DNA from: Bacteroides uniformis
Lineage (GTDB): Bacteria; Bacteroidota; Bacteroidia; Bacteroidales; Bacteroidaceae
Direction: 5' to 3'
DNA length: 64,000 nt
Assembly (NCBI RefSeq): GCF_025147485.1
Contig: NZ_CP102263.1
Location: 1,935,501-1,999,500, forward strand
Positions 16,566 through 41,180 of this stretch are shown piece by piece (the stretch's first letter is position 1; the number at the start of each line of letters is the position of its first letter). The notes below the pieces were generated by a model that worked only from the letters and a program-made list of their open reading frames with translations, had not been told where the DNA came from and did not search any database. A program made the translations under genes and the position numbers.

Positions 16566-16606
16566 ATAAAAATTAAGGAGTTAAGTCTTAGACTTAACTC
16601 CTTAAT
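16566..16606 (-). terminator. Native terminator of tRNA-Pro, now beside att site A
   Basis: A perfect 16-bp stem (16572-16587 with 16591-16606, loop TTA) is followed on the minus strand by a T-rich run. It lies directly downstream of the tRNA 3' half at 16613-16659, so it is probably the original chromosomal terminator. Confidence 0.75.
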
Positions 16607-16612
16607 GCTCAA

Positions 16613-16659
16613 CAGTCGGGATGACAAGATTCGAACTTGCGACCACACGCCCCCCAGAC
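16613..16659 (-). other. att site A: 3' half of tRNA-Pro
   Basis: 47 bp identical to 36132-36178, covering the tRNA 3' half and the anticodon-loop core CCCCCAGAC (16651-16659). The match stops there and continues into unrelated sequence (TTCGCGAGAG). Left boundary of the integrated region. Confidence 0.9.
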
Positions 16660-16721
16660 TTCGCGAGAGATAAACTGATAACGGCTGATTATCAATTGTA
16701 TATACTCTATTGCATCTCTTT

Positions 16722-16741
16722 CGGTTTACACTATGGTTTAC
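16722..16741 (+). repeat. Terminal direct repeat of element 1, left copy
   Basis: CGGTTTACACTATGGTTTAC, itself containing GGTTTAC twice, is repeated exactly at 36018-36037 in the same orientation. The position near both ends suggests integrase arm-type binding sites. Confidence 0.75.
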
Positions 16742-16903
16742 CTATAGTATAATGCTGCTTGTTAATACTAAATCTTTATTTGGAATTATTGCTAATTAGT
16801 TAATTCCTATATGTCTAATTCTCATTTGCAAAAATAATACTTTTATTATTAATCTGTGCCTTCTATCGAGTAATTTTTATAGTCAGTTTTCCTTTTCAAA
16901 TCC

Positions 16904-16927
16904 CCTCAAACTCTTATATATGATAAG
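16904..16927 (+). repeat. TTATATATGA motif, copy 1
   Basis: CTCAAACTCTTATATATGAT belongs to a three-copy motif (with 17213-17238 and 19107-19134 minus) seen only in the element 1 module. It may be an element-specific promoter or operator. Confidence 0.5.
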
Positions 16928-17212
16928 ATAGCTTGGAGCATTATTCAGCACTGCAATGAAGAGTGCGTACGGCTTCAAGCATTAATGATAAAAACAATTA
17001 CCGGGTCACACTTATTTTCAGAAGATGGATAAGCATGTAGATTCGATGATGCGTAGCAATTTCAGTATGTGGACAAGACATAAAGTTCCCCACGAAAGAA
17101 TGTATGCCGCATGATAGGCCAAGTAAATGCGAGGAGCTATTTACAACGGTTCAACTATCACAACCAGTCGAAAGATTGGTCTATTTTTTTCTTCTCCCCT
17201 TCCTTGATTTCC

Positions 17213-17238
17213 CTTCAAAGCCTTATATATGAGAAAAG
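17213..17238 (+). repeat. TTATATATGA motif, copy 2
   Basis: TCAAAGCCTTATATATGAGA lies about 60 bases before the small gene at 17296, where a promoter would be expected. Confidence 0.5.
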
Positions 17239-17295
17239 TATATAAGAGAAATAGAGAATAGAAACATAATTACTAACAATTTAAAACTAAGAGAC

Positions 17296-17460
17296 ATGGG
17301 AAATTTAATTAAAGGATTGAAGGTCGCAGCTTATGTGGCCGAGATTATCGTGGCAGGTTCCGTAGTAATCGAGCTTGCAGAAAAGTATTGTGGCAAATTC
17401 GGAAAAAAGAAGATTGCCACGGGTGAAGTCAAGGCCGTTGATGCTGCGACTGAAAACTGA
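17296..17460 (+). CDS. Small hydrophobic protein, 54 residues
   Basis: ATG GGA AAT start, 54 codons, stop TGA. One hydrophobic helix (about 10-27, AYVAEIIVAGSVVIELA) is followed by a basic stretch (KFGKKK) and a charged tail. It is preceded by the TTATATATGA motif and followed by another small ORF and the DUF3871 gene. Such short membrane ORFs are common at the head of mobile-element modules. Function unknown. Confidence 0.55.
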   Translation: MGNLIKGLKVAAYVAEIIVAGSVVIELAEKYCGKFGKKKIATGEVKAVDAATEN

Positions 17461-17475
17461 TAGTACGTCTGATGA

Positions 17476-17586
17476 ATGGATTATGACAAGAAAGCGGACG
17501 TAATAATAACCGTATTGGAGGTAGCAATTTCAATACTCAAAGGAATAAAGAAGCTAAGAGGTATATTCATAAAAGCAAAGAAATGA
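17476..17586 (+). CDS. Small protein, 36 residues
   Basis: ATG GAT TAT start, 36 codons. It has an amphipathic or hydrophobic stretch (VIITVLEVAISILKGI) and a basic end (IFIKAKK). It lies 15 bases after the preceding small gene and 61 bases before the DUF3871 gene. Too short for family assignment; it could be chance. Confidence 0.35.
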   Translation: MDYDKKADVIITVLEVAISILKGIKKLRGIFIKAKK

Positions 17587-17647
17587 CACCTCTTGGCTTT
17601 TTGTTTTTTCATCGCATTTTATTAACCGACTAAAAAATAACAAGAGT

Positions 17648-18210
17648 ATGGAAACAATGACTAATGAACTTACTGTCATTCCAAGAACAATCGGAATGGT
17701 AACAAGAATGATGGATGCAGTTAATATCGAAGATGCTGTAATCGTATCTGAAGAAGAACAGAAAGAGCATCCTAATTTTATTGAGAGTAACACTTCGGGT
17801 ATTACACTTGAAGAACTTGAAAGGAACTGTATTGTCCCTAGTTTTGGGGATAACCAGCTTACAATCAGCCACCAGAAATTTATCCACCAGGTAGAGGATG
17901 CCGCGAAAGTATATTTTACCGGAGAGAACTTTGGTAACACGGAAATCAGAGTATCACATAAAATCCTGGGCAGGGTTCCGGGAGCATTGACAAAAAGGAA
18001 AGAAGAGCTTAGACCGGAGGACGAGACCATCTATTATCAACGTATGGCTTTCTGTTTTCATATCCGTTCCATGAGCAGAATGATGAACGGCGAGGAAGTA
18101 CATTTATGTATCGGAGGTGTAAGAAGCCTGAACGAGGAAAACTTATACGCCCGAAAATCACCCGAGAAATTCAAGATCTTTATCGGGTGGAGGGTTCGTG
18201 TGTGTTCAAA
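17648..18210 (+). pseudogene. DUF3871 family gene, 3' end lost
   Basis: The N-terminal 185 or so residues match the DUF3871 family of Bacteroidetes mobile elements (EHPNFIESNT, ISHQKFI, IRVSHKILGRVPGAL, IYYQRMAFCFHI, CIGGVRSLNEENLY, EKFKIFIG). Homology stops at about 18205-18215. The open frame continues to 18649, but that part is antisense to the helicase-like gene and does not look like DUF3871. The 3' end was probably lost in the same event that truncated the convergent helicase gene. Role of DUF3871 is unknown. Confidence 0.7.
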
Positions 18211-19084
18211 TCTGGATAGTCACCTCATCCGGCTTCAGACTGTTTTGCCCGATTATCCTTATGATCGACTTGACCTCATTGAGAAATATGCAGGCTTCAC
18301 GGGAACAGACTATATTTCCATCCACTATTTTCCTTTCAAAATATCCGTCCCTTCTGTAACGTTGTATCAGTTCCCCACACAGTTTCTCCGCAGTCTCACC
18401 GTTCCTCATCTGCCTCTCCTTCAATGTCGGCTCCACAATCACATCAGGATCCCATTCCAGTTTATAGTAGGGAATGTTGGCGAATTGAGGTATGTAGTCA
18501 AGGTAGATGTCAGGGACAGGTGTAGCGGACAAGTAACAGATACGTTTCACTTCACTGTCAAGCCGGATGAGAAAATTCATGTCCGTACTGCCCTTGAACG
18601 TCGCATCGCCCATAAGACATTGGAACTCATCGACCACAAAGAGGCATGAATCCAGCATATTATTTCCTCTAAGGACACCAAGAACCTTGTCCGATGAATC
18701 CAGTGTAACCAGTATCTTGGCAGGTCTCATTGGCAAGGGGGTAAATGGTGTGCTTCCATGATGACAGTCCAGGTACGAATCAAGATCACGCATCATTTGG
18801 ATTATTGCTTGTCCTCTATTACCACTGAATGGGACATGGAAGTGAAAACTGTCGGGATATTGTCTGTGCTTCTCTTTCAACACCTGAAGTCGTGGCGAAA
18901 TTATTACCACAGGAAAGTTCGAATCGAGAAACAGGGATGTACCACCACAACCGGTTACAGTCTTGTTCAGGATAAACTTACCATCCAATGGCAATTCCCC
19001 ATTCAAGAGATTTTCATAATCACTCATATACCTGCAACCTTTCGGCATACTAATTGATATCATATTATTTATATTATTATCCAT
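18206..19084 (-). pseudogene. Helicase-like gene, 3' end lost
   Basis: About 292 residues from the start MDNNINN (19084), chosen because the longer frame would run over a promoter-like motif. It resembles the N-terminal part of an SF2-type helicase: TVTGCGGTS as the P-loop-like start, VVDEFQ as motif II, YLSATP as motif III. The second RecA domain is absent and the frame ends at a stop (18206-18208) right where the convergent DUF3871 gene also loses homology. Probably inactive. Confidence 0.65.
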
Positions 19085-19106
19085 AATTGTTTTATTTTTG
19101 TTTATA

Positions 19107-19134
19107 CTCATTTCATATATAAAGGTTTGCAATG
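19107..19134 (-). repeat. TTATATATGA motif, copy 3
   Basis: The minus strand reads GCAAACCTTTATATATGAAA, 25-50 bases upstream of the helicase-like start at 19084, the position expected for a promoter. Confidence 0.5.
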
Positions 19135-19486
19135 TTTTTATATACCCTTTTTACACTTCGATGAGTAAACGGAACGCATCAATATTTTTCCTTATGCAAT
19201 CTATTTCTTTTAAGTAAAATCTCTCATTTTGACAAAAAAAGTTGCATGAAACTATTGTATATCTTTCTTCTTTCGTTTGTTGTAGGCTCACGCCGCCTGA
19301 GTGGGTATTATAATAAAATATGCAGTATATGTATAATAAACTTGCCTCCGGTTAACTCACAAGGTGTTATTTTGCAATATTTTTCACCTGTATCCTTGAC
19401 ATATGGATTCTTTATTGGCTTTGACGAAATTTTAAAGGAGAGCTTATGCAGCATCTCCTTTATCTTTCCAATCAGTCAGTACATTC
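19135..19486. other. Intergenic stretch between helicase-like and Gp37/Gp68-like genes
   Basis: AT-rich, with no supported gene. An 89-codon plus-strand frame (19246-19515) overlaps the end of the next gene and has no family features. Confidence 0.5.
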
Positions 19487-20158
19487 TCAAGTCCAGCACT
19501 TGGCATTGGATTTGACTACCACTTTGGTAAATTTCTGAAGTTCGGTTATCAATGCCTGCACTTCATTCCTTGTCGGTTCGGGAAGGGTAATGTCCTGTCG
19601 TGAGTTCCTGCCGATATTGACTTGTACAGGAGAACACATGCTGACAAGTTCAACCATTTCGGGCAAGTCGAATTTTATCAGAGGTTCACAGGTCACATAG
19701 GTTCTCATTCCAAGGCTCGCCAGTTTTTGCATGGCTTTGGCACGTTTCCGGGTACCTGGAGCATTCCTTACGATGTCCGGATAAAAGACATTGGTTTCAA
19801 TGGTCGTGCACAAAACCGATTTCTTCATTACCGGATGCCCTATGAACTCCAAGAAACGTATGGGGTCCTTGGATTGGAAAAGATAGTTATTATCAAACTT
19901 GTCACAATAATCCAGAACCCGGGCAATCCAGTCCGAAGGTACGTCGAAAGCCCATGCGTCCGTTCCGCTACCAACGAAAATAAAATTGCCGTTACCCAGG
20001 TTTACTTCCAGTTCCTTGGGGTCAAACCGTATAGGAAGCAGACCATCGAATTTTTTCATGTAACAATAGGGGCAGTCATGAAAACATATTCCTTTTATTG
20101 CATTCCACGTGTGGGTAACAAAAGGATACATGTTACCCCGGCTTTTTGTCAGTGCCAT
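19487..20158 (-). CDS. Phage Gp37/Gp68-like (DUF5131-type) radical SAM-like protein
   Basis: 223 residues with a cysteine motif C-x3-C-x2-C (CFHDCPYC, about 27-34), which in radical SAM enzymes binds a 4Fe-4S cluster. The segments NFIFVGSGTDAWA and TYVTCEPLIKFDLPE fit the phage Gp37/Gp68 family. These proteins occur on phages and plasmids; their reaction is not settled. It is followed 27 bases upstream on the same strand by the VirE-N-like gene, so the two probably share a transcript. Confidence 0.75.
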   Translation of the reverse strand: MALTKSRGNMYPFVTHTWNAIKGICFHDCPYCYMKKFDGLLPIRFDPKELEVNLGNGNFIFVGSGTDAWAFDVPSDWIARVLDYCDKFDNNYLFQSKDPIRFLEFIGHPVMKKSVLCTTIETNVFYPDIVRNAPGTRKRAKAMQKLASLGMRTYVTCEPLIKFDLPEMVELVSMCSPVQVNIGRNSRQDITLPEPTRNEVQALITELQKFTKVVVKSNAKCWT

Positions 20159-20185
20159 AATTGTTTTTTTAAAGGGGTGATTAAA

Positions 20186-21118
20186 TCAGTGTATTGTAAA
20201 TATCAATGTTCCGAAGTTCTTCTCTTCGGTCTTATAGGCGTTGCCCACATGGCTTCTGATTTCCTTTTCATCCATTGTGTCATCTTCCCAGCCATCAATG
20301 AAATACTCAGTAGCCAATTCCTCGTCAACACCCCATTTGCACATCCAGCAGGCTAACCTGAAGATGCAGTTTCCCCTGTTGCCTTTTTTCCAATATTCAG
20401 GATTGTTCCTTTTCCAGTGGGAGTTCATGATGCTGATGATGCTTTTGTCCGACACTGTTCTTGTCCCGGATGATTGTGGCATCTGTACCTGTGGCTTTAT
20501 GGTGGGGACATAAGGGTACGGTTCAGGATTTGGATTGGTCCAGATGTCAGGATCGTAACTCAGATAATTTCTGCGTGCCAGGTCTTTACAGCTTGCATCA
20601 TTTCTGTTTGCCACATAGAATTTATCCAGTAGCTGTCCATACAAATCTTCATGTCTGGCCGGATCTGTATTGTCATGCAAAACCAGAGCCTTCAGTCCAT
20701 TTCCACTGGGTGTAACAAAAACACTCAGGACACATTCGGTTATCATCAGCTTGTTCCGTAACCGGATCATTTCATCCGGTGTTGCTATATGGTCAAAATC
20801 CAATGCCGTCACACGCGAGTATTCAATCAGCCCCGCACCGTTAAGTTCCCTGAATGTACCGTTATAGGCAACAGCGGGCAGGAGTCTGGCTTTCCATTTC
20901 CGCATGTCACCTGGAGCTACACTTCTGATATGCTCTATTGCCTGCTTCAATGTATAGTCTCCAAACTCATTGTCATGCAATTGCATGTCTCCCGTGCGAA
21001 TCATCTGTATAACATCTCCTAACTCAGGATAAGCCAGGTTGTACTTTGTCCAATTAATCTTTTCTGTCAATGTCGTTTTCATATTCTTTACCATAGACTT
21101 TATTGCTTTTTTATCCAT
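20186..21118 (-). CDS. VirE N-terminal / BT4734-like domain protein
   Basis: 310 residues with the BT4734/BF3469-type VirE-N signature: ALDFDHI, VFVTPSGNGLKALV and LARRNYLSYDPDIW. The C-terminal part (NRGNCIFRLACWMCKWG, DEKEIRSHVGNAY) resembles a small primase-C-like helical region. The family is linked to replication modules of Bacteroidetes mobile elements; a primase-like role is inferred. It overlaps the upstream Sel1-HNH gene by 19 bases. Confidence 0.75.
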   Translation of the reverse strand: MDKKAIKSMVKNMKTTLTEKINWTKYNLAYPELGDVIQMIRTGDMQLHDNEFGDYTLKQAIEHIRSVAPGDMRKWKARLLPAVAYNGTFRELNGAGLIEYSRVTALDFDHIATPDEMIRLRNKLMITECVLSVFVTPSGNGLKALVLHDNTDPARHEDLYGQLLDKFYVANRNDASCKDLARRNYLSYDPDIWTNPNPEPYPYVPTIKPQVQMPQSSGTRTVSDKSIISIMNSHWKRNNPEYWKKGNRGNCIFRLACWMCKWGVDEELATEYFIDGWEDDTMDEKEIRSHVGNAYKTEEKNFGTLIFTIH

Positions 21119-21922
21119 CTGAGATTATCAGCCGCATTGTTGGACATGTCGCCGTCAATATGCTCCACTTCCGTATAGGCCTTCGGATCAGGATTGACCA
21201 GGAATGTCTCAGCAACGAGGAGATCGACATAAGCCTTCTCCCCGCCGATGATGATGTACTGTCTGCCGTTTGCCTCCCCGAATACCGGTACATTGCCTCC
21301 ATTTGCGGATGATGGCATTGCCAGACCGGTACGGGAACCTCCTTTTTCAAGGCTTTTTCTGACATCCGACCATAACCTGTATTTCCTGATGTCCCTCATG
21401 CCCCGTGAATACAGACCTTCATACAGGTCACAGAGGAAGTCCACACTGTCATATATCCCCAGTTCATAGGCCTTCTCGAACCATCCTGTCGCTTCCTTGT
21501 ACATTACGGGAGTCCCAAACAGCCCTTTGAGGCGTATATGCCCCATTGTGAAAGCCGACAGTCCGTCACCTGAATCCGCAGCCTGTCCGAGTAACCCGAT
21601 ACCTTTCCCTATATCCTGCGGACATCCCCTGCCCTTCCAGGTATATATGGCCCAGATTGGCTTTGGCTGTGGGGAATTTATCTGCAATACTCTCTAGAAG
21701 AGCGATTGCCTTGCCGGTATCATGCTTTACAGCCATCCCTTTCAGGTAATATATGGCAACGGCGTTGATTCCATATACGAATCCCTGTGTAGCCGAACGG
21801 TCATACCATAGGAAAGCCTCGTCGGCATTTCCCTTATCCTCATAATACAGACCGGTTAGATACTGAGCCTCTGCATCACCTGCCTGGGCCTTTTCCAAAA
21901 TTCTTTTTGTTTCTGTTTTCAT
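21100..21922 (-). pseudogene. Sel1-repeat / HNH-like protein gene with a frameshift
   Basis: The frame starting MKTETKRI (21922) encodes Sel1/TPR repeats (AEAQYLTGLYYEDKG, GINAVAIYYLKGMAV, AKANLGHIYLEG). Near 21625 the repeat continues in another frame (GCPQDIGKGIGLLGQAADSG) down to 21100. One extra base in the run CAGGGGATGTCC would explain it. The C-terminus has an HNH-like end (VEHIDGDMSNNAADNLRW) as in homing or restriction-type nucleases. Together this would be one protein of about 270 residues. It could be a true mutation or a sequencing error. Confidence 0.65.
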
Positions 21923-22739
21923 GTTTCTTTCATTTTTGAAATTGAACATTTTTTTAAAATCACACATGTAAGGATTTCGGGGTTTTGTCAGACGGCAGTT
22001 TTTTATGTGTGTAAGTTGAAGTGGGAGAATATGCGGATGATGGTCCGATGGATTTGTCCGGCAATCGTTTCGGTATGTCAAGACTTTCCGGTAAAGTTAT
22101 CAGATGAAGATGATAGCCAGAACCGAGGGAGTGAGTGTTAGTACGGTCTAGAGATTGAAAAAGATGTTCGGGCTGTAGAAATAATGATGAGGACTATATA
22201 TGTTTTAAAAACAGCTGATTTTTTTTACTGACGTTTCCGCGGCCGAATAGTTTCTTTGCGGTGCCAAACGAAAAATGTACCAGGCTGATCTAACGGAGAC
22301 CGAATGGCGTATATAACAAAAGTGTTAAATTTGCAGGAAGAGTAAAATATGATTTGTAATGCTGTATTTTTTAGTTAAGACTAGTTGTCAATGGCATATG
22401 CCTCTTTTCGAATTCCCAAAGTGACAGTTGTTTTATCACCACTATCGTAAATGAGGTTCTTTGTCGGAGTTGGGCTTATTGTTAGAGAAATTACGTGAAG
22501 ATATACGTGTGAAACATAGCATGGGACCAATTGTAAATAGTATCGTGGACAATCAAAATGTCAAAGGGGAACAATGCTTCCTTGAACGGTGTTGACGGGA
22601 ATAAAAAGCAAAAGGCATAAAACGTAATATCATAGTAGATAAAAATCTTTTTCTTTTAACTATTAGAATACGTACTTTTGATAGTGTAGTTGTCTTAATA
22701 TAAGATATTGCTAACAATCATTACTAAATAATACTAAAT
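21923..22739. other. Long non-coding junction between element 1 modules
   Basis: About 800 bases, AT-rich, with no supported gene. It separates the minus-strand module from the plus-strand PUL and may mark where the two were joined. Confidence 0.55.
22673..22680 (+). promoter_or_regulatory. -7 box before the PUL
   Basis: TACTTTTG fits TAnnTTTG, 60 bases before the SGNH hydrolase start; the -33 box is weak. Confidence 0.45.
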
Positions 22740-23408
22740 ATGAAACACTTATTCTTTGCTCTTCTGTACTTTTTCGCAACAGTGGCAACGGCCCAAACAC
22801 TGAGCGAGTATCCTGATTTTGAAAGATATCAAAAGGATAATGAACGCATCATTCAAAACAAAACTTATCCGAAAGTGATTTTTATCGGAAATTCCATTAC
22901 CGACGGATGGGCTAGCAAACGCCCCGTTTTTTTTACAGGTCATCAATTTTTAGGTCGTGGCATCAGCGGTCAAACCAGTCCGCAACTCCTGCTCCGCTTC
23001 CAAAAAGATGTGATTGACCTTAAACCAAAAGCTGTTGTCATCAACATCGGTACGAACGACATAGCCGAAAATACTGGTAAGTACAGCATCGAATATACGG
23101 TGAGTAACATCAAATCAATGGTAGAGTTAGCCAAATCACATAAAATCAAAGTGTATCTTTCTTCGGTTCTTCCGGTTGATGTGTATCCTTGGAGAAAAGA
23201 CATTACGGATGCAGTGAAACAGATTTATGAGCTGAATGTGCGGATCCGGCAACTTGCCAAAGCAAAACATGTACACTACATTGATTACTTCAGTGAAATG
23301 AGCAAAGAGAACGGAGGCATGATTGATGAATATACGTATGATGGTGTCCACCCTACAGATAAAGGATATGAGGTTATGGAAAAAATCGTATTGTCTGCCA
23401 TCAAATAG
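22740..23408 (+). CDS. Secreted SGNH/GDSL hydrolase
   Basis: 222 residues with a signal peptide (KHLFFALLYFFATVATAQ). All four SGNH blocks are visible: IGNSITDGW (catalytic Ser), GRGISGQTS, GTNDI and DGVHP (catalytic Asp and His). It should be a periplasmic or surface esterase, perhaps deacetylating the glycan before mannosidase action. It lies 21 bases before the ECF sigma gene and so belongs to the PUL. Confidence 0.9.
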   Translation: MKHLFFALLYFFATVATAQTLSEYPDFERYQKDNERIIQNKTYPKVIFIGNSITDGWASKRPVFFTGHQFLGRGISGQTSPQLLLRFQKDVIDLKPKAVVINIGTNDIAENTGKYSIEYTVSNIKSMVELAKSHKIKVYLSSVLPVDVYPWRKDITDAVKQIYELNVRIRQLAKAKHVHYIDYFSEMSKENGGMIDEYTYDGVHPTDKGYEVMEKIVLSAIK

Positions 23409-23429
23409 CCACAGATACAAACCGTTATT

Positions 23430-24026: not shown

Positions 24027-24027
24027 T

Positions 24028-25050: not shown

Positions 25051-25071
25051 CAGAAAAAGAAGAAAAAGAAA

Positions 25072-25107
25072 AAGGATTGCAAATTGTTGCAGCAATTCAC
25101 AATCCTT
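25072..25107 (+). terminator. Hairpin between anti-sigma and susC-like genes
   Basis: AAGGATTG and CAATCCTT pair around a partly paired loop. No T tract follows, so it may attenuate or process rather than end the transcript. Confidence 0.4.
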
Positions 25108-25158
25108 GTCGTCGAATAAATTAATTAAAGATTAAATCAATTACTCAGTTACAAATTT

Positions 25159-28569: not shown

Positions 28570-28580
28570 ATATTATACGT

Positions 28581-30482: not shown

Positions 30483-30498
30483 TTTAACAATAGCAACT

Positions 30499-31191: not shown

Positions 31192-31192
31192 G

Positions 31193-33438: not shown

Positions 33439-33442
33439 GAAA

Positions 33443-35698
33443 ATGAAACATTTATACTTTTTGTGTGTTGTGTTTGTTTTTTTATTCGCAGGGTACGCCC
33501 TCTCTCAGGGATCGAATAAAGAACATAACTTGACTCCCGTTGACTATGTCAACCCTTATATGGGCAACATCAGCCATTTACTAGTACCCACTTATCCTAC
33601 GATTCATTTGCCCAACAGCATGTTGCGTGTATATCCCGAACGGAGTGATTATACAGGTAGTCAATTACATGGATTGCCGCTCATCATTACCAGCCATCGG
33701 GGCACTTCGGCCTTTAACCTTAGTCCTTGCCAAGGAGAGCCGTTACAGCCGGTCGTAAACTATAGCTATGACCATGAGAACGTCAAGCCCTACTATTACG
33801 AAGTGTTTTTGGATGAAGAACAAATTGAGGTCAAGTATGCGCCTTCACGTCAATCGGCTTTATACCAACTCCGCTTTACCCAAACGGACAAACCGGCTTA
33901 TCTCATTGTGAATTCCCGGCACGGAAAAGTTCAGGTAGCGGAAAACCATATCAGTGGTTACCAGCATTTGGATAACAACACTCGAGTCTATCTGTATTTG
34001 GAAACTGAGCAGATGCCAGTACAATCAGACATGCTGGTGGATGGGAAATTGAGCCGTACGACGACTGCAGAAGGTCACAATGCGTGTGCGGTGTTGGCCT
34101 TTGCAAAACAAACTGAGTATGTGCGTGTAAGATACGGTATTTCATTTATCAGTGAAGAACAAGCTCGCAAAAACATGGAACGTGAATTGTCCGGTTATGA
34201 TGTGGTGGCACTGGCTGATAAAGGGCGGAATATCTGGAATGCTTCCTTGGGCAAGATAGACGTTAAGGGAGGAGATACTGACAGTAAGCGGGTATTTTAT
34301 ACTTCTTTGTACAGGGTATTTGAACGCCCAGTCTGTATCAGCGAAGACGGGCGCTATTTCAGCGCGTTCGATCATCGGGTACATAATGATTATGGTTTGC
34401 CTTTCTATACAGATGATTGGATATGGGACACATATCGTGCAGCCCATCCATTACGTGTACTTATCGATCAAAATACGGAGTTGGACATCATTCGGTCCTA
34501 TTTGCGTATGGCAGAACAGATGGGAACGATGTGGATGCCTACTTTCCCGGAAATTACAGGAGATTCTCGACGAATGAATTCTAATCATGGAGTGGCTACG
34601 ATTGCAGATGCGGCTGCCAAAGGAATCAAGTTTGATTTAACCAAAGCATACAATGTGTGCAAACGTGCTATTGAAGAGAAGACATTGGCTCCTTGGTCAG
34701 CAGCAACCTGTGGCTGGATTGATCTGTTTTATAAAGAAAAGGGGTATATCCCTGCTTTGCAGCCTGATGAAAAGGAAACTGATCCGAATGTACATTCCTT
34801 CGAAAAACGTCAATCTGTAGCCGTGACACTCGGAACGGCGTATGACGAATGGTGTCTGTCACGCATCGCTGAAATGCTAAATAAGGATGAAGAAGCTGCC
34901 TACTATCGTTGTCGTTCGTTTAATTATCGCCATATTTACAACAAGGAAACGTGCTTTTTCCATCCAAAGGATAAAAATGGCAAGTGGATTAGCCCATTTG
35001 ATTACCGCTTTTCTGGTGGTCAGGGTGCCCGTGAGTATTATGGAGAAAATAATGGTTGGGTGTATCGTTGGGATGTGCCGCATAATATTGCCGACCTTAT
35101 TGAACTGATGAATGGCAAGGAACAGTTTGTTGCCAATTTGGATCAGATGTTCAATGAGTCTTTGGGAAAAAGTAAATTTGATTTCTATTCTCAATTACCC
35201 GATCATACTGGCAATGTGGGACAATTCTCCATGGCGAATGAGCCGTCTCTGCATATTCCTTATCTTTATTGTTATGCTGGTCAGCCTTGGAAAACTCAGA
35301 AGCGTATCCGCCAGTTGTTAAAGATGTGGTTTCGCAATGATTTGATGGGCATTCCTGGGGATGAAGATGGAGGGGGCATGTCAGCCTTTGTTGTCTTTTC
35401 TTCTCTCGGTTTTTATCCTGTCACTCCGGGACTGCCTATTTATACCATTGGCAGTCCGATGTTCAGTGAGGTCCGTATCAAGTTACATAACAACAAGTTT
35501 TTCACAATTATAGCAGAGGGGGTGTCAGATGAAAATAAATACATCCAGTCGGCCACTCTCAATGGCAAAGAATTGAATCATGCCTGGTTTGCACATGAGG
35601 ATTTGATAAATGAAGGTGTATTGATCTTGAAAATGGGAAACAGACAAAATAAGATGTGGGGTATCGATTGTCCACCACCCTCTCATGGGCTGAAATAA
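33443..35698 (+). CDS. Glycoside hydrolase family 92 alpha-mannosidase
   Basis: 751 residues with a signal peptide. GH92 enzymes are calcium-dependent exo-alpha-mannosidases. Motifs seen: VDYVNPYMGN at the N-terminus, NEPSLHIPYLY (catalytic acid Glu) and GIPGDEDGGGMSAF (catalytic Asp region), then LGFYPVTPG. The length is typical. It is the last gene of the PUL. Linkage specificity (1,2, 1,3 or 1,6) cannot be read from sequence. Confidence 0.94.
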   Translation: MKHLYFLCVVFVFLFAGYALSQGSNKEHNLTPVDYVNPYMGNISHLLVPTYPTIHLPNSMLRVYPERSDYTGSQLHGLPLIITSHRGTSAFNLSPCQGEPLQPVVNYSYDHENVKPYYYEVFLDEEQIEVKYAPSRQSALYQLRFTQTDKPAYLIVNSRHGKVQVAENHISGYQHLDNNTRVYLYLETEQMPVQSDMLVDGKLSRTTTAEGHNACAVLAFAKQTEYVRVRYGISFISEEQARKNMERELSGYDVVALADKGRNIWNASLGKIDVKGGDTDSKRVFYTSLYRVFERPVCISEDGRYFSAFDHRVHNDYGLPFYTDDWIWDTYRAAHPLRVLIDQNTELDIIRSYLRMAEQMGTMWMPTFPEITGDSRRMNSNHGVATIADAAAKGIKFDLTKAYNVCKRAIEEKTLAPWSAATCGWIDLFYKEKGYIPALQPDEKETDPNVHSFEKRQSVAVTLGTAYDEWCLSRIAEMLNKDEEAAYYRCRSFNYRHIYNKETCFFHPKDKNGKWISPFDYRFSGGQGAREYYGENNGWVYRWDVPHNIADLIELMNGKEQFVANLDQMFNESLGKSKFDFYSQLPDHTGNVGQFSMANEPSLHIPYLYCYAGQPWKTQKRIRQLLKMWFRNDLMGIPGDEDGGGMSAFVVFSSLGFYPVTPGLPIYTIGSPMFSEVRIKLHNNKFFTIIAEGVSDENKYIQSATLNGKELNHAWFAHEDLINEGVLILKMGNRQNKMWGIDCPPPSHGLK

Positions 35699-36017
35699 AG
35701 AAGTTGTAAATTATATCAACGACTATCCCAGTTCTGATTTTAATTTTACTATTGGTCAAGGTTGGGTTTATGTTTATTTATGACTGATTCCAATCAAGAT
35801 TTATACATAGTGGTATGAGTTTGGGTTAAGAATATATGGGTATAAGCCAATAAAATTTTGGTAACCATGTCATATTACGGATATTCCCAAACTTTTCATT
35901 ACTCTTTTTTTGCTCTCTGTAATACGTAACATGAGAGGGTGCTCTCCGTTTGATAACACTTTACTCTTAAAACAAATCACTGAAACCTTGATACTCATTG
36001 CTTTAAAGGTTGTGCAG

Positions 36018-36037
36018 CGGTTTACACTATGGTTTAC
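36018..36037 (+). repeat. Terminal direct repeat of element 1, right copy
   Basis: Exact copy of 16722-16741; here a further GGTTTACACTA unit overlaps its end. Confidence 0.75.
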
Positions 36038-36091
36038 ACTAACCTTGATTTTGTCCCATTTCTACTGCTAAAATCAGGAAATGTATAAAAA

Positions 36092-36128
36092 GAAAAAGTG
36101 CCGATAATCATTGGATTACCAGCACTTT
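36092..36128 (-). terminator. Hairpin downstream of the intact tRNA-Pro
   Basis: AAAGTGC and GCACTTT arms with a partly paired interior; on the minus strand it is followed by a T-rich stretch. Unrelated to the terminator at site A, so it was probably brought by element 1. Confidence 0.65.
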
Positions 36129-36134
36129 ACTCAG

Positions 36135-36208
36135 TCGGGATGACAAGATTCGAACTTGCGACCACACGCCCCCCAGACGCGTACTCTACCGGGCTGAGCT
36201 ACATCCCG
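36135..36208 (-). tRNA. tRNA-Pro (anticodon GGG), att site B
   Basis: The minus strand gives acceptor CGGGATG pairing with CATCCCG, a GCTC/GAGT D arm, an anticodon stem CGCGT/GCGTG with loop CTGGGGG (anticodon GGG), a T arm with GTTCGAATC, and discriminator A. CCA is not encoded. It is 74 nt. Its 3' half matches site A and its 5' half matches site C. Confidence 0.95.
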
Positions 36209-36545
36209 TCTTTCTTTGAATTGCGGTGCAAAGGTACGTATTTATGGGGATTCTGCAAATTTTCTTCCTCTTTTTTTGTATTAATAATGAGTTTTTTTCT
36301 TTTGATATGCGTAACTTGTTGTTTTGTAGTTGATTATCAGCTGCTGTGATGTTGATTGTTGTTTGTATTTGTTTATATACAGTCTACTTTAATATTTTAG
36401 GAAAGTTTTAGGGAGAAAACGTGGCAGAAATTAGGTATATATTTTCTTCTGTTAATCAGTATTAAATAGGCGATATTTTTATAAACCTATTTTTCTTCTT
36501 TTGAGAAATAACCCTATATTTTTGCTGCACTTTAATATTTATAAT
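36209..36545. other. Non-coding region between tRNA-Pro and the integrase remnant
   Basis: Holds the tRNA promoter; otherwise AT-rich with no supported gene. Confidence 0.5.
36229..36236 (-). promoter_or_regulatory. -7 box of tRNA-Pro (copy B)
   Basis: The minus strand reads TACCTTTG 20 bases before the tRNA 5' end. The flanking GAATTGCGG resembles the promoter at site C. Confidence 0.55.
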
Positions 36546-37016
36546 ATGGCAACATTTAAAGTGCTTTTGCATTCCTCTAATAGGAGGAAGGATGGAACCT
36601 ATCCGGTTTCATTGAGAATCATAAAGAACATGAAAGCCAAGTATATTTCACTGGGGCTTTACTCCAAGAAGGAGGAATGGGACGTTATTGGTGAACGTTT
36701 CAGATGTGATAAGCGTGTCTGTCCTAATTATAAGGAATTCAATGCGCGAATAGTTCAACTGCTGGCACGCGCTCAAGAAGTCGAGCGCCATTTTGAGTTT
36801 GATAGGATTGATTGGACGCTGAATCAATTCGAGGATGCTTTCCTATATAAGGATAAGAAGGGAAAGTTCTTGGATTTCGCATTGTTGTGTATTAAGGATA
36901 TGAAAGAAACGGGACATATCGGTAATGCAAAAGTGTGGGAAAAGGTCATCTGTAATATGAAATTGTTCGACAAGAAGCTGTCCACACGTTATTTTCAAGA
37001 GATAGACATCAAGTAT
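36546..37016 (+). pseudogene. Tyrosine recombinase (integrase), N-terminal part only
   Basis: About 157 residues resembling the N-terminal arm-binding and SAM-like domains of Bacteroides phage integrases (MATFKVLLHSSNRRKDGTYPVSLRI). The catalytic R-H-R-Y domain is missing. An IS21-family element interrupts the gene. Removing the IS and one target copy gives only DIKYN then a stop, so the gene was already broken or lost more sequence. Its place beside the tRNA suggests it was the integrase of element 2. Confidence 0.75.
37010..37016 (+). repeat. Target duplication of the IS, left copy
   Basis: CAAGTAT, repeated at 39652-39658. Part of it may belong to the IS end; at least AGTA is duplicated. 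Confidence 0.6.
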
Positions 37017-37192
37017 GTTGGAAAATCCAGTGTAAGCTGCCCCCTAAAACCAAGCGATTCTGCCCCCTTGTGCTAAAATAATCCTACCCCCTTGATTCCA
37101 ATATAAAAATACCCCTGCTTGGCAATGCCCGGCAGGGGATTTTTCGTAGATTTGATTCCCGTCTTGACCGGTGGGATAAAATCATTTCTACT

Positions 37193-38773
37193 ATGACAAC
37201 AAAGATAGCAAACATCCTCCAATGTTACGCATTGGGGATGGGGATAAAGCAGATAAGCAGGAGCTTTGAGCTTTCCCGCAACACGGTGCGCAGATATGTG
37301 CGCCTGTTTCAAGAGTGTGGTATACCGATAAAGGAGTTGGCCGCCATGCCTTCCGCTCGCATCCAGGAAATGTTCTCTGAAGGTGTTGGCCGTAACAGGG
37401 AACCGTCACAACGCCAGCTTGAGCTTGAGGCACTCCTTCCTGAGTATGCTGCCCGGCTTAGCCGCCGAGGCGTAACAGTGAAAACCCTGTACGAAGAGTA
37501 CCGCGAGACCCATCCTGACGGATACAGACATGCCAGTTTCGGCAACTATCTCATGCGTTACCGTATGGTGACACATGTCGTAGGCCATGTCGAGCATTAT
37601 GCCGGAGACCAGATGTATATCGACTTCGCCGGTGACAAACTGGAAGTCGTTGACAGTGAAAGCGGTGAATGTCGCAGCGTTGAAGTGTTCGTGGCCATAC
37701 TTCCGTGCAGCCACTATACCTATTGTGAGGCGGTCTGGTCCCAGTCAAGACAGGACTTGATTAAGGCGTGTGAGAACGCGCTTCATTTTTACGGCGGGGT
37801 TCCGATGGCGATCGTACCAGACAACCTCAAATCGGCGGTAACCCGCAGCGACCGTAACGAGCCGGTAATCAACGAGGAGTTTGCGGCATTTGCCGAACAC
37901 TACGGATGTACCGTATACCCCACACGGGTACGTCATCCAAAGGACAAGGCCTTGGTGGAGAATGCCGTGAAGCTACTTTACCGATCCGTCTACGCTGACA
38001 TCGAGGGTCTTGTATTCCACTCGCTGGAGTCTCTGAATGCGGCCATATCCGAATCGCTCTCGGCCTTCAACGGACGCAGGATGAGCGGGCGTCCCCAGTC
38101 CAGACGGGAACAGTTCGAGCAGATTGAGTCCGACTGCCTCCGCCCGCTTCCCGCCATACGCCATCAGATGAAAGAGCGACGCTCCGCAACAGTAATGCGT
38201 AACGGCTATGTCACCTTCAGGCTTCACCATTACAGCGTACCGAAAGAGTATATAGGCAAACGTGTCGAGATTGTCTATGATGCGGACACGCTGGAAATAT
38301 ATCATGGCCTGCGTCTGGTGACCACACACCAGCGCGATGACACGCCATACTCCTATACGACCAAGGATGCCCACGGACTGCCCGGACGTCATGGAAGTTA
38401 TGAAAAGGATCTGGAACAGATTTACGAACGGGCCGGCCAGACAGATAACGTCCTGCTGCTGTATCTGCGCAAGGTGGCGGAACTCAAGAAGTATCCTCCC
38501 GCGGCGTTCCGTTCATGCAGAGGCATCATGGCGTTGGAGAAGACCTTCGGGCTGGAACGGTTGGTGGCGGCAAGCGCATGCGCCACGCAACTGCGCCTAT
38601 ACGGATATCAGGAGATAAGGCGGATCCTTGAACGCGGGGATGATGCAGACTTCCTGTCAAAAGACGACATTGACGATGAGGTCCCCGTAACATCTATCCA
38701 CAAAAACATCCGCGGAGCAGCCTACTTCGCACAATTAAAACATTTAAATAGAGACAACAATGGAAACAAATAA
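37193..38773 (+). CDS. istA: IS21-family transposase IstA
   Basis: 526 residues. An N-terminal HTH (IKQISRSFELSRNTVRRYVRLF) is followed by a DDE integrase core with MYIDFAGDK, VPDNLKSAV and VENAVKLLY, then a C-terminal Mu-like beta region. It cuts and joins the IS ends. It overlaps istB by 14 bases, the usual coupling in IS21 elements. The gene looks intact. Confidence 0.95.
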   Translation: MTTKIANILQCYALGMGIKQISRSFELSRNTVRRYVRLFQECGIPIKELAAMPSARIQEMFSEGVGRNREPSQRQLELEALLPEYAARLSRRGVTVKTLYEEYRETHPDGYRHASFGNYLMRYRMVTHVVGHVEHYAGDQMYIDFAGDKLEVVDSESGECRSVEVFVAILPCSHYTYCEAVWSQSRQDLIKACENALHFYGGVPMAIVPDNLKSAVTRSDRNEPVINEEFAAFAEHYGCTVYPTRVRHPKDKALVENAVKLLYRSVYADIEGLVFHSLESLNAAISESLSAFNGRRMSGRPQSRREQFEQIESDCLRPLPAIRHQMKERRSATVMRNGYVTFRLHHYSVPKEYIGKRVEIVYDADTLEIYHGLRLVTTHQRDDTPYSYTTKDAHGLPGRHGSYEKDLEQIYERAGQTDNVLLLYLRKVAELKKYPPAAFRSCRGIMALEKTFGLERLVAASACATQLRLYGYQEIRRILERGDDADFLSKDDIDDEVPVTSIHKNIRGAAYFAQLKHLNRDNNGNK

Positions 38774-39542
38774 TCTTACCGCACCGATAGCTGTCGAAAA
38801 AGACCGCAACACGTTGACAATCGAACTGATGAACCGTATGAAGCTGCACGGCATGGCCGCCGCCTTCACTGAAAGCCTAACCTCCACTATGGCAGAAACA
38901 ATGACAATCGACTCTTTCCTGCACATGTTACTTGCCAGGGAATGGGACTACCGTGCCAATGCAGCCATCCAACGCCTTATACGCGGGGCGGCGTTCCGCT
39001 ACAAGGCCTGCCTCGAGCAGATAGACTATGCAATCCCGCGTGGCCTTGACCGCAATCAGATGGAGCGGCTTGCATCGCTGGAGTTCATCCGCAAGGGACA
39101 GAACCTCTTCATCACAGGGTCATCCGGTACCGGGAAGAGCTTCCTTGCCACAGCAATGGGGTATGAAGCCTGCAAGAAGGGCATACGGACATATTATGCG
39201 AATGCTCCGAAACTTATGGGTACGCTTAAGGTGGCAAAAGTAAAAGGCACACTGGAATCGGAACTCAAGAGAATCGAACGGAGCACGCTGCTCATATTGG
39301 ATGACCTCTTCCTTGTGAACCTTGATGCCAAGGAACGACCCATCCTGCTCGATATAATAGAGGACCGACATGGGCGCAAGTCCATCATCATCACCTCGCA
39401 ACTGCCAACGGACAATTGGTATGATGCAATCGGAGACCCTACAGTAGCAGATGCCATTATGGATCGTATTATACATACGGCGCACCGGATTGAGCTGACA
39501 GGAGAAAGTGTCCGTAAAATGGCTGCATACAGAGGGAAATAA
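38760..39542 (+). CDS. istB: IS21-family helper ATPase IstB
   Basis: 260 residues, AAA+ ATPase of the DnaC/IstB type. Walker A is TGSSGTGKSF and Walker B is LLILDDLF; IITSQLPTDNWYDAIGDP is typical of IstB. It selects target DNA and activates IstA. Intact and translationally coupled to istA. Confidence 0.95.
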   Translation: METNNLTAPIAVEKDRNTLTIELMNRMKLHGMAAAFTESLTSTMAETMTIDSFLHMLLAREWDYRANAAIQRLIRGAAFRYKACLEQIDYAIPRGLDRNQMERLASLEFIRKGQNLFITGSSGTGKSFLATAMGYEACKKGIRTYYANAPKLMGTLKVAKVKGTLESELKRIERSTLLILDDLFLVNLDAKERPILLDIIEDRHGRKSIIITSQLPTDNWYDAIGDPTVADAIMDRIIHTAHRIELTGESVRKMAAYRGK

Positions 39543-39651
39543 ACTAAAATAATAATAACCCCATCGGTCAAGACTTTTTAAGGGGGCATTGTTGAATGTT
39601 TTAAGGGGGCAGAATCGCTTGGTTTTAGGGGGCAGCTTACACTGGATTTTC

Positions 39652-39658
39652 CAAGTAT
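39652..39658 (+). repeat. Target duplication of the IS, right copy
   Basis: CAAGTAT, matching 37010-37016. Confidence 0.6.
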
Positions 39659-39659
39659 A

Positions 39660-39908
39660 ATTAACCAAGAAGATAAATTAAAAAAGAGCTTCGATTACAC
39701 ACTTCCTGGTAATTCTGAAACAGACAAGGGTCAGTCATTAACTGTTTTTAGCTCTGAAAGCTCTCTTTTAGTTCCTAAAGATACAACAAATCTAAATATT
39801 GAACAACAATTTATGGACGAAATTATAGAGAAAGCTAAGAAATCATCCCCTATTGGTACAGAAAAGACGTGGGGAAGTAAAGTTTATATAAATGCTGGAA
39901 TAGGATGA
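39660..39908 (+). pseudogene. Coding remnant right of the IS
   Basis: 82 codons (INQEDKLKKSFDY ... KVYINAGIG) open from the IS edge to a TGA. It is hydrophilic and has no start codon or recognisable family; it is not integrase sequence and not in the integrase frame. It looks like the 3' end of a gene whose front was deleted. Confidence 0.4.
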
Positions 39909-40012
39909 ACATGTTGTCTGTGTACTTTATTTATATTGGTGTTCATTGTGTTGTTACGCTTTCACTACTTTATAAAAGATTATGTAATAAATATTTGGAT
40001 AGTCAAAAATAA
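39905..40012 (+). CDS. Small hydrophobic ORF
   Basis: 35 codons beginning in an ATGA overlap with the preceding remnant's stop. It is mostly one hydrophobic helix (MLSVYFIYIGVHCVVTLSLLY) and a basic tail. The coupling suggests a real small membrane protein, but it may be chance. Confidence 0.3.
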   Translation: MNMLSVYFIYIGVHCVVTLSLLYKRLCNKYLDSQK

Positions 40013-40105
40013 TTAAATATATTTGTTCTTCATAAGGTATAAATGTGCTATATACAGTGTGTTAGTATAGTGCATTGAGTATTAATATGAACAAATATTA
40101 GGATT

Positions 40106-40759
40106 ATGGCGACTAAAAAGAACGGCTTTAATACTGGAATTGCTAGTGAGTATTTGGTGTTGTCCATGTTGTATCGGTTGAATTATGAGGCTTATATAAC
40201 AATGGGAAATAAGAAAAGTGTTGATATTTGGATAATGAGGGATGATAAAACTGCTGTCTCGATTGATGTGAAATCTGTTCGTGAATATGATTCTATTCCC
40301 GTAGGTAATGTGGAGGCAAAAGATAACCACTATGTTATATTTGTGATATATAATAAAAAATTTGAAATTGAAGGTACTCCTACACTGCCTGATTTTTATA
40401 TAGTTCCTAGTTCATATGTGGTAGAAAACAGGAAAGAATATGAATTGAAAGCTGGTGGAGAACGTTATAATATCTTTAAAAAGGATATTGAAGGATATAA
40501 AAATCATTGGGAGCTGTTGAATTCTTCTATTAAAAGTGGGAATGTTACACATGGTAAACTGGAAAAAGAAATGAATAGCAAAGAAGAAAAACAATTAGTT
40601 AGTTCTCGGTGGAATGACTGCAGTACAATGAGTATTATTCATACTCCTACTGAAGAAGAGAGGAAAAAAGCAACTGATGAAATGGTTGACAATCTAATTA
40701 AGAATATAAAGAAATTTGCTGACAATGAAAGAGAAGATGAAGGTAAGGAGGAGGGGTAG
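40106..40759 (+). CDS. PD-(D/E)XK nuclease-like hypothetical protein
   Basis: 217 residues. E15 in ASEYLVLSML, D40 in SVDIWI and D54-V-K56 in VSIDVKS form the pattern of a PD-(D/E)XK nuclease core; LPDFYIVPSSYV follows as in restriction-like folds. The C-terminal half is charged (ending DNEREDEGKEEG) and may be helical. No methylase or other defence partner remains beside it. A hairpin terminator follows. Activity is inferred from motifs only. Confidence 0.6.
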   Translation: MATKKNGFNTGIASEYLVLSMLYRLNYEAYITMGNKKSVDIWIMRDDKTAVSIDVKSVREYDSIPVGNVEAKDNHYVIFVIYNKKFEIEGTPTLPDFYIVPSSYVVENRKEYELKAGGERYNIFKKDIEGYKNHWELLNSSIKSGNVTHGKLEKEMNSKEEKQLVSSRWNDCSTMSIIHTPTEEERKKATDEMVDNLIKNIKKFADNEREDEGKEEG

Positions 40760-41141
40760 ATTAGTCTAATTATAATTCATGTATATAATAGAATGCCGTT
40801 TAATGAAAATATTGAATGGCATTTTTTTTGTTTTGAATGCTATTGTAAGAATAGATACTATTTATAAGTGTTGGTAAAATAGGGATTGCTTATGGGGAAT
40901 TGATAGGGAATTGGAGAGCATTTTTTGTTGTCCGCGGTTAAAGAATGTCCGAACTTTATAGTGTACTAAAATAAATGATATTATGGTTTGTTTCGGAGTT
41001 GATTTGTATCGATTTTCATTAATTTGTAATGATTATTTTAGAAAAGTTGTATATAAAAAAGAAAAAGGAGATGAACAGATTGTTCTAACTCCTTCTATAT
41101 CTGAAAGTAATATTAAGTTCTTGAAAATTAGCTCTTTGTTT
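40760..41141. other. Non-coding right end of element 2
   Basis: No supported gene. A 76-codon frame (40983-41213) runs across the att site and reads tRNA sequence, so it is spurious. Confidence 0.5.
40792..40831 (+). terminator. Terminator after the PD-(D/E)XK-like gene
   Basis: AATGCC (40792-40797) pairs with GGCATT (40818-40823), followed by a run of T bases. Confidence 0.7.
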
Positions 41142-41180
41142 CCCCCAGACGCGTACTCTACCGGGCTGAGCTACATCCCG
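41142..41180 (-). other. att site C: 5' half of tRNA-Pro
   Basis: 39 bp identical to 36170-36208, from the core CCCCCAGAC (41142-41150) to the tRNA 5' end. Right boundary of the integrated region. It is followed by a tRNA-type promoter and the backbone. Confidence 0.9.

What the first reader, a model, noticed from the sequence alone, without database searches (positions are those of the whole stretch)
16613..41180. One tRNA-Pro gene occupied by two elements in tandem, with a split att core
Three sites share CCCCCAGAC in the anticodon loop: A (3' half only), B (full tRNA) and C (5' half only). Joining A to C rebuilds a full tRNA with its own promoter and terminator, so the original gene was split. 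The working tRNA at B is a hybrid: its 3' half comes from the right end of element 1, its 5' half and promoter from the left end of element 2. Two elements that each restore a different half of the same tRNA, using an anticodon-loop crossover, is an unusual arrangement.
Basis: partly seen in the sequence, partly recalled or inferred. Interest (0 to 1): 0.8.

Follow-up and report, generated by a model that had tools for sequence, protein, structure and literature searches.

The report
tRNA rebuilt by two mobile elements
A single proline tRNA gene in a gut Bacteroides has been invaded twice at the same spot, so that the tRNA gene now in use is a patchwork whose front half and promoter came from one mobile element and whose back half and terminator came from another.

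Summary
A (3' half), B (full tRNA-Pro GGG) and C (5' half) share exact 47-nt and 39-nt repeats overlapping in CCCCCAGAC. Relatives carry an uninterrupted A-C gene. Element 1 (A-B) restores the 3' half; only 41 codons of its integrase remain, beside a mannoside-utilisation locus. Element 2 (B-C) restores the 5' half and carries a promoter motif; an IS21-type element cuts its integrase after about 158 residues. An intact relative lies at the same tRNA in Bacteroides propionicigenes. Both elements are probably dead, and neither the promoter nor the terminator next to B is ancestral.

All 14 loci with both junctions show one orientation. The 5'-carriers are not one clade (p-AU 0.00057), so polarity changed at least twice. 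All 12 folded 5'-carrier right ends have a terminator-like hairpin 45-47 nt from the core, near where real tRNA terminators lie. 5'-restoring islands are known but rare: a new variant of a known kind.

The parts
15636..16415 (-). Left host flank gene: TerB + DnaJ domain protein
   Evidence: Pfam
16572..16606 (-). Ancestral (host) terminator hairpin of the tRNA-Pro gene, now behind the displaced 3' half
   Evidence: 100% complementary 17-nt arms; matching left side of empty sites in relatives
16613..16659 (-). Site A: displaced host 3' half of tRNA-Pro(GGG) with core CCCCCAGAC at 16651-16659
   Evidence: 47 of 47 identical to B
16660..36178 (.). Element 1, 3'-half-restoring, about 19.5 kb, integrase truncated
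   Evidence: flanked by the 47-nt repeats; both ends resemble 3'-type elements L041/L044/L045
16722..16741 (+). Left copy of CGGTTTACACTATGGTTTAC, putative integrase arm-type site
   Evidence: exact 20-nt repeat with 36018; GTTGAC or GTTTAAA repeats at like places in L041, L044, L045
17648..18649 (+). DUF3871 protein
   Evidence: Pfam 3.8e-61; homologues in all three compared 3'-type elements, 39-47%
20186..21118 (-). BT4734-like / PriCT_1 primase-type protein
   Evidence: Pfam; no match in the compared 3'-type elements
22740..35698 (+). Mannoside-type utilisation locus: GDSL lipase, ECF sigma, FecR, SusC-like, SusD-like, DUF3823, GH125, DUF5040, GH92
   Evidence: Pfam
35876..35998 (-). Remnant: first 41 codons of a tyrosine integrase (MSIKVSVICFKSKVLSNGEHPLML...), rest missing
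   Evidence: tblastn, 63% to the L045 and L041 integrases, E about 1e-12
36018..36037 (+). Right copy of the 20-nt repeat near the end of element 1
36095..36128 (-). Terminator hairpin carried by element 1, now terminator of the working tRNA
   Evidence: sequence read; folded, dG -18.4, 7 T of 8 behind it; differs from the host hairpin at 16572-16606
36134..36208 (-). Site B: working hybrid tRNA-Pro(GGG), core 36170-36178
   Evidence: ARAGORN; Rfam RF00005 56.9 bits
36209..41141 (.). Element 2, 5'-half-restoring, decayed; its left copy of the half-tRNA is 36170-36208
   Evidence: flanked by the 39-nt repeats; collinear pieces with the intact element in L065, 74-84%
36229..36259 (-). Promoter motif carried by element 2 that now stands before the tRNA (TTTG-N19-TACCTTTG on the - strand)
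   Evidence: pattern hit; aligns with the left end of the L065 element
36501..37019 (+). Integrase N-terminal fragment (Arm-DNA-bind_5, SAM-like); catalytic domain absent
   Evidence: Pfam; 80% over 158 aa to L065 integrase
37018..39654 (.). IS21-type insertion (52-nt inverted ends) in element 2
   Evidence: IRs 37018-37069 / 39603-39654, 100%
37193..38773 (+). IstA-like transposase
   Evidence: Mu-transpos_C_2 + rve
38760..39542 (+). IstB-like ATPase
   Evidence: IstB_IS21 1.3e-65
40106..40759 (+). Element-2 cargo ORF, no Pfam or PADLOC hit
   Evidence: first 138 aa 72% to an ORF of the L065 element
41064..41095 (-). Terminator-like hairpin at the right end of element 2, 46 nt from the core, facing the displaced host promoter
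   Evidence: dG -11.0, z -3.4, T-rich tail
41142..41180 (-). Site C: displaced host 5' half of tRNA-Pro(GGG), core 41142-41150
   Evidence: 39 of 39 identical to B
41192..41222 (-). Ancestral (host) tRNA promoter motif, now before the displaced 5' half only
   Evidence: pattern hit; empty sites in relatives match on this side
41364..42137 (-). Right host flank gene: NigD-like protein
   Evidence: Pfam; a piece of it follows the uninterrupted tRNA in G083, G075, G062

Best explanation
Two different integrative elements entered the same tRNA-Pro(GGG) gene by tyrosine-recombinase crossover in the anticodon-loop segment CCCCCAGAC. Element 1 carries a copy of the 3' half plus a terminator, so its insertion pushed the host 3' half to the left (A). 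Element 2 carries a copy of the 5' half plus a promoter, so its insertion pushed the host 5' half and host promoter to the right (C). Each insertion rebuilt an intact tRNA at the junction (B), which is why a second one could follow. The order cannot be read from the junctions, because both orders give the same sequence. Both integrases have since been destroyed, by truncation to 41 codons in element 1 and by an IS21-type insertion with flanking deletion in element 2. The cell probably now depends on a chimeric tRNA gene that its own elements can no longer restore. Shown: the repeats, the empty site, each element kind without the other elsewhere, the damage, and the homology of B's two sides to element ends. 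Inferred: strand-exchange positions, transcription from the promoters, and the function of the terminator that faces C.
For: Exact 47/47 and 39/39 repeats with a 9-nt overlap. Uninterrupted A-C sites in relatives with terminator and promoter sides and host flank pieces. 3'-type elements at this tRNA (L041, L044, L045) and 5'-type elements (L034-L039 and named loci L054-L058, L065, L078). Integrase remnant of the compared 3'-type elements' kind at the right end of element 1. Integrase fragment of the 5'-type family at the left end of element 2, grouped with L065 and L066 at 100/100. Left and right ends of element 2 align with the L065 element, including the promoter region and the terminator (45 of 47 nt next to the core). 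Promoter motif on both B and C, terminator-like hairpin at the element-2 right end; the same hairpin scan passes in 0 of 25 three-prime left ends and 1 of 150 random stretches.
Against: No close relative of element 1 was found: its right end matches nothing over more than about 100 bases in 158 genus genomes, own genome included, and its primase-type protein has no match in the compared 3'-type elements. It is therefore possible that only its two ends come from that element type and that the middle was assembled later. The window genome holds a 49%-identical full-length relative of the element-1 type of integrase elsewhere (C1:3423414), so help in trans, though not shown, is not excluded. No expression data exist. 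No strain known to be of the same species with zero or one element was available.
Confidence: 0.92

Rival explanations
1. One composite element carrying a whole tRNA-Pro gene in its middle entered once, and A and C are simply the two ends of that insertion.
For: A+C alone rebuild a full gene, and the 9-nt core CCCCCAGAC at A and C would be a valid direct repeat. A tandem formed elsewhere could have moved in as a unit. The review PMC5704250 (passages seen) says that transfer of a whole composite element cannot be excluded for such tandems.
Against: The left part has 3'-type features at both ends and the right part has the ends of an element that occurs without the left part in L065, with kin in L066. 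Each half-repeat matches the half expected for its own element type. Even under this rival the tandem must first have formed by two insertions at a tRNA-Pro (inference).
Confidence: 0.06
2. The three sites result from duplication and decay of an ordinary tRNA array, without integrases.
For: Partial tRNA copies can arise by duplication and deletion (general knowledge).
Against: The breakpoints fall on the same few bases of the anticodon loop in many species, beside a tyrosine integrase in the assigned loci. Relatives show a single gene at the site.
Confidence: 0.01
3. Element 2 came first and element 1 later used the hybrid tRNA as its target (the opposite order is the alternative).
For: Element 2 has lost more of its gene content: about 2.3 kb of its own sequence is left against 7.4 kb between the junctions of its intact relative.
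Against: Either order gives the present junctions, and both repeats are 100% identical, so they carry no clock. Element 1 is also damaged.
Confidence: 0.5

Closest known systems
tRNA-integrated genomic islands with a displaced 3' fragment (3760 of 3919 in Islander, PMC4383910, passages), incl. IntGA2ch elements at tRNA-Pro of gut Bacteroidales (PMC8102008, passages)
   Same: Element 1: crossover in the anticodon region, 3' half restored, displaced 3' fragment on the far side. PMC8102008 reports a 19-bp flank CTGGGGGGCGTGTGGTCGC at tRNA-Pro, the reverse complement of the 3'-half/core sequence seen here.
   Different: Element 1 has lost all but 41 codons of its integrase and carries a mannoside-utilisation locus. 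Whether IntGA2ch belongs to either integrase family here was not tested.
Islands with a displaced 5' fragment (159 of 3919 in Islander, PMC4383910, passages); Zhao and Williams 2002 (reference and one citing sentence seen in PMC6563490; the paper is not held)
   Same: Element 2: the 5' half is restored from the element and the host 5' half is displaced.
   Different: Here relatives of the same integrase family carry the other half at the same core and in the same orientation; a terminator-like hairpin faces the displaced host promoter in 12 of 12 right ends folded.
pTN3-like archaeal integrases (PMC8371274, passages)
   Same: attB in the 5' half of a tRNA; the rebuilt tRNA is expressed from an element-borne (integrase) promoter.
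   Different: Archaeal, suicidal integrases whose gene is split on integration; here the integrase gene lies beside the core and is not split by integration.
Tandem accretion of ICE/IME/CIME elements (PMC5704250, passages)
   Same: Elements, often decayed, share one target, with a chimeric inner att site.
   Different: In the examples of those passages the elements lie on one side of the restored gene; here the two elements restore opposite halves, so both sides of the gene are replaced (inference from the passages).

Membership tests
3'-restoring tRNA genomic island (element 1) | Displaced 3' tRNA fragment on one side, intact tRNA on the other, in direct orientation | tested here: met
   47/47 repeat A-B
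3'-restoring tRNA genomic island (element 1) | Own intact tyrosine integrase | tested here: not met
   Only codons 1-41 left at 35998-35876(-); none of the 23 PF00589 matches of the genome lies in the window
3'-restoring tRNA genomic island (element 1) | Uninterrupted target in relatives | tested here: met
5'-restoring tRNA island (element 2) | Displaced 5' fragment upstream, intact tRNA downstream, same orientation | tested here: met
   39/39 repeat B-C
5'-restoring tRNA island (element 2) | Element supplies the promoter of the rebuilt tRNA | tested here: inconclusive
   Motif TTTG-N19-TAnnTTTG at 36229-36259 and alignment with the L065 element end; transcription not measured
5'-restoring tRNA island (element 2) | Own intact tyrosine integrase | tested here: not met
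   N-terminal 158 residues, then IS21-type insertion; the other 10 matches in the own genome are at most 31% identical
Tandem (accreted) islands | Each member has its own tRNA fragment | tested here: met
   A for element 1, C for element 2
Tandem (accreted) islands | Each member has its own integrase (as Islander requires, PMC4383910) | tested here: not met
   Both are fragments
Tandem (accreted) islands | Excision of members singly or together | not testable with these tools
   needs PCR or reads across A-B, B-C and A-C

The most novel reading that the evidence does not exclude
One integrase family of Bacteroidales at tRNA-Pro(GGG) has repeatedly changed which half of the tRNA its elements carry, while keeping the same core and the same insertion orientation. 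To become a 5'-carrier an element must pick up a promoter and 5' half on its integrase side. It keeps, or re-acquires, a terminator on its other side at about the distance of the tRNA's own, although the 3' half between has been replaced. Its attP is then a complete transcription unit with a dead 3' half, which stops the host promoter stranded by insertion. Because 3'- and 5'-carriers replace opposite sides, they can stack until no promoter or terminator of the host gene is left in use, as at B. The short RNA made from C (5' half + about 47 nt + terminator) could even have a role.
Probability: 0.6. Interest if true: 0.7.

Novelty: new variant of a known kind. Interest (0 to 1): 0.57.

Why it matters
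It shows a tRNA gene whose promoter, both halves and terminator next to it are all copies carried in by mobile DNA, probably frozen by decay of both integrases. The relatives turn a rare curiosity (5'-fragment islands, 159 of 3919 in Islander) into a tractable case: one integrase family with both polarities at one site. It can be asked directly how an attP changes the half it carries, and what a 5'-restoring element must add (promoter, and a terminator against the stranded host promoter). Island finders that require an integrase per element would miss this locus.

Tried and rejected
Single composite element and plain duplication: see rivals. Search for an integrase inside element 1 by Pfam on 14 ORFs found none, and none of the genome's PF00589 matches lies there; a 41-codon remnant appeared only by tblastn with related integrases. 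An attempt to find element 1 intact elsewhere by its right end gave no convincing match. The source of the cargo stays open: the best-scoring other copies of its GH125 gene in 157 genus genomes (own included) are 65-67% identical, with shorter stretches up to 71% (list sorted by E-value). PADLOC gave two weak hits (E 0.003 and 0.008) among 10 ORFs, not used. Rfam at gathering threshold finds only the tRNA at B in 16000-42000. The order of insertion could not be resolved.

Rows dropped before the tree: L076 (one stop inside), L078 (frame lost in the matched stretch), L107, L108, L109, L111, L112, L113 (partial or weak). L034, L036, L037, L042 and L043 were left out because they are the same places as L054 (100% over 10001 bases), L058, L055, L059 and L103 (equal contig lengths). 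L035 was cut to its first 338 residues. Of 60 loci, 38 could be assigned a polarity (8 five-prime, 30 three-prime) and 22 could not (no tRNA-Pro piece near the integrase, contig end, or partial match).

Against my reading: three-prime loci were assigned from a 3' half found on the left of the integrase, so 'same orientation' is an independent result only in the 14 loci with both junctions on the contig. The direction of change (3' to 5') rests on a distant outgroup and on weak deep branches; only 'at least two changes' is firm. The strict promoter motif with both boxes is present at 4 of 8 B sites and 6 of 9 C sites tested, against 7 hits on both strands of the whole window; the other 4 B sites keep only the CAAANNTA box. 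The hairpins were picked as the best of a scan, so their z-scores are inflated, and the 12 elements are related. The control took 25 of the 30 three-prime loci. Real terminators at 15 sites scanned the same way lie at 40-48 nt and are mostly stronger (one site, L059, was set two bases off). In L056 and L066 the left junction or its 3' half lies off the contig. The genus search for double occupancy listed rows only down to a cut, so other tandems may exist.
Full report
What is there. The window holds one tRNA gene, tRNA-Pro(GGG) at 36134-36208 on the minus strand (Rfam agrees). Forty-seven bases of its 3' side recur exactly at 16613-16659 (A), and 39 bases of its 5' side recur exactly at 41142-41180 (C). 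The two repeats overlap only in CCCCCAGAC. The nonamer itself occurs four times in the window against a mean of 0.48 in shuffles; the fourth copy (1131-1139) lies far away. In the whole genome the tRNA query hits only these three places at E <= 0.001.

The empty site. A query joining the host flanks of A and C through the core matches genus relatives without a break, over the terminator side, the whole tRNA and the promoter side. The best is G091, 93% over query 165-331; 113 of 119 genomes, own included, had some match to the query. In G083, G075 and G062 a piece of the right flank (NigD side) follows about 55-140 bases behind the tRNA hit, and in G075 and G062 a piece of the left flank precedes it. 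A and C are therefore halves of one ancestral gene. The window's genus is Bacteroides by inference: contigs of its same-genus relatives G110, G047 and G095 have the lengths of records of B. xylanisolvens XB1A, B. stercorirosoris and B. ndongoniae.

Element 1 (A to B). Its ends look like those of three elements that restore the 3' half at the same tRNA in other genomes (L041, L044, L045): a GATTATCA-like stretch near the left core and short direct repeats near both ends (GTTTAC in the window, GTTGAC in L044 and L045, GTTTAAA-like in L041). In those three the integrase lies next to the restored tRNA, on the minus strand. In the window the same place holds only its first 41 codons (35998-35876, minus; 63% identical to L045, E about 2e-12). 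The DUF3871 gene of element 1 has homologues in all three (39-47%); its primase-type gene has none there. The rest of the cargo includes a mannoside-type utilisation locus: ECF sigma, FecR, SusC/SusD-like, GH125, GH92. The best-scoring other GH125 copies in the genus are 65-67% identical at DNA level.

Element 2 (B to C). Its integrase fragment (36501-37019) carries the arm-binding and SAM-like domains but no catalytic domain, and is followed by an IS21-type insertion with perfect 52-nt inverted ends. The nearest kin found is an element with a full-length integrase at the same tRNA in B. propionicigenes NSJ-90 (L065; 80% over 158 aa). Pieces of the two elements align at 74-84%, including both ends, and the 47 bases next to the right core are 45/47 identical. 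Compared with L065, the window copy lacks the rest of the integrase and what follows, up to about residue 265 of the ORF at L065:13810-14706. L065 encodes a helix-turn-helix protein and a G2P-type replication protein (Phage_CRI) behind the integrase. The motif TTTG-N19-TAnnTTTG stands right of B at 36229-36259, in sequence shared with L065, and a separate one stands right of C. The reading of this motif as the Bacteroides promoter is recalled knowledge.

The working tRNA. At B the 3' half and terminator hairpin (36095-36128) adjoin the right end of element 1. The 5' half and promoter motif adjoin the left end of element 2. The host terminator (16572-16606) and host promoter motif (41192-41222) are left at A and C. 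Both orders of insertion give this structure. Two sequence variants of this tRNA were seen in the loci. In 9 of 12 five-prime-type loci B could be typed by exact match of both halves (window, L054, L055, L057, L058, L065, L035, L038, L039); in these 9 the two halves are of the same variant, although the window's nearest kin L065 carries the other variant. As the acceptor stem pairs across the two halves, compatibility is probably selected (inference).

A family with both polarities. The integrases of 5'-type elements form one family with that of element 2. Sixty loci with matches to it were fetched from named genomes. Thirty-eight could be assigned: 8 have the 5' half duplicated (L054-L058, L065, L066, L078) and 30 have a displaced 3' half left of the integrase followed by unrelated sequence. 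Fourteen loci show both junctions: 7 five-prime (L054-L058, L065, L078) and 7 three-prime (L059, L060, L070, L077, L088, L095, L110). In all 14 the integrase lies at the same side of the core, so insertion orientation is the same and only the carried half differs. L043, the genome of L103, agrees. In the tree (59 rows: 11 five-prime, 28 three-prime, 17 unassigned, 3 outgroup) the five-prime rows fall into two groups: window + L065 + L066 (100/100) and eight others (97/96). Three 3'-type rows are sister to the second group. Two changes are the minimum. One clade of all five-prime rows is rejected with p-AU 0.00057; polarity had been assigned before the tree was made. Direction is not firmly known.

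Terminator rule. In 12 of 12 right ends of five-prime elements folded, the best hairpin of a scan lies 45-47 nt from the core with 6-7 T in the 8 bases behind it, reading away from the stranded host promoter (dG -11.0 to -16.1, z -3.4 to -6.4, inflated by the choice of the best). The same scan at dG <= -11 and at least 6 T passes in 0 of 25 three-prime left ends and in 1 of 150 random stretches. Real terminators at 15 tRNA-Pro sites lie at 40-48 nt, and in window A at 44 nt. In the 3'-type relative L059 a like motif, AAGGAGCTAAG...CTTAACTCCTT, precedes a genuine 3' half. The simplest reading is that five-prime elements descend from carriers of the 3' half, kept the terminator, and had the half-tRNA between overwritten (inference). 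A further five-prime remnant, L040, has a similar but mismatched hairpin and was not folded.

Comparison. 5'-fragment islands are known: 159 of 3919 in Islander, against 3760 with 3' fragments (PMC4383910, passages). PMC6563490 (passages) calls recombination with the 5' region considerably less frequent. PMC8371274 (passages) describes pTN3-like archaeal integrases whose rebuilt tRNA is read from the integrase promoter, a situation 'seldomly encountered in bacteria'. The tRNA-Pro target is known for IntGA2ch elements of gut Bacteroidales (PMC8102008, passages). Tandem accretion with decayed partners is known (PMC5704250, passages). In the listings and the passages named I saw no description of two elements restoring opposite halves of one tRNA, or of one integrase family with both polarities; the library holds open papers only, and the other listed papers were not opened.

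Verdict.

Noticed in passing
window 1131-1139: A fourth CCCCCAGAC on the minus strand; the tRNA query has no match there, so probably chance.
   Followed up: partly
window 22740-35698: A complete-looking mannoside utilisation locus (GH125, GH92, SusC/D, ECF sigma/FecR) inside a tRNA-integrated element, directly beside the integrase stump.
   Followed up: partly
L065, L037: Two 5'-type elements encode a Phage_CRI (G2P-type) replication protein behind the integrase, so they may be related to filamentous-phage-like or rolling-circle elements.
   Followed up: partly
L046 (G063:C94): tRNA-Pro and mirrored ORFs around it appear as an inverted pair on one contig; possibly an assembly palindrome.
   Followed up: no
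L040 (G009:C106): A five-prime element reduced to about 1.2 kb without integrase, with a mutated core (CCACCAAAC) at the displaced half.
   Followed up: partly
L035, L058: The displaced 5' half at C carries a point change while the copy at B is canonical, as expected if C is no longer under selection.
   Followed up: partly
L057 8936-9096: The displaced 5' half is followed by a tRNA-Ser gene and no promoter motif, so in that genome the tRNA-Pro probably was the second gene of a tRNA operon.
   Followed up: no
L066: A five-prime element on a contig labelled Gastranaerophilales; probably a misbinned Bacteroidales contig.
   Followed up: no
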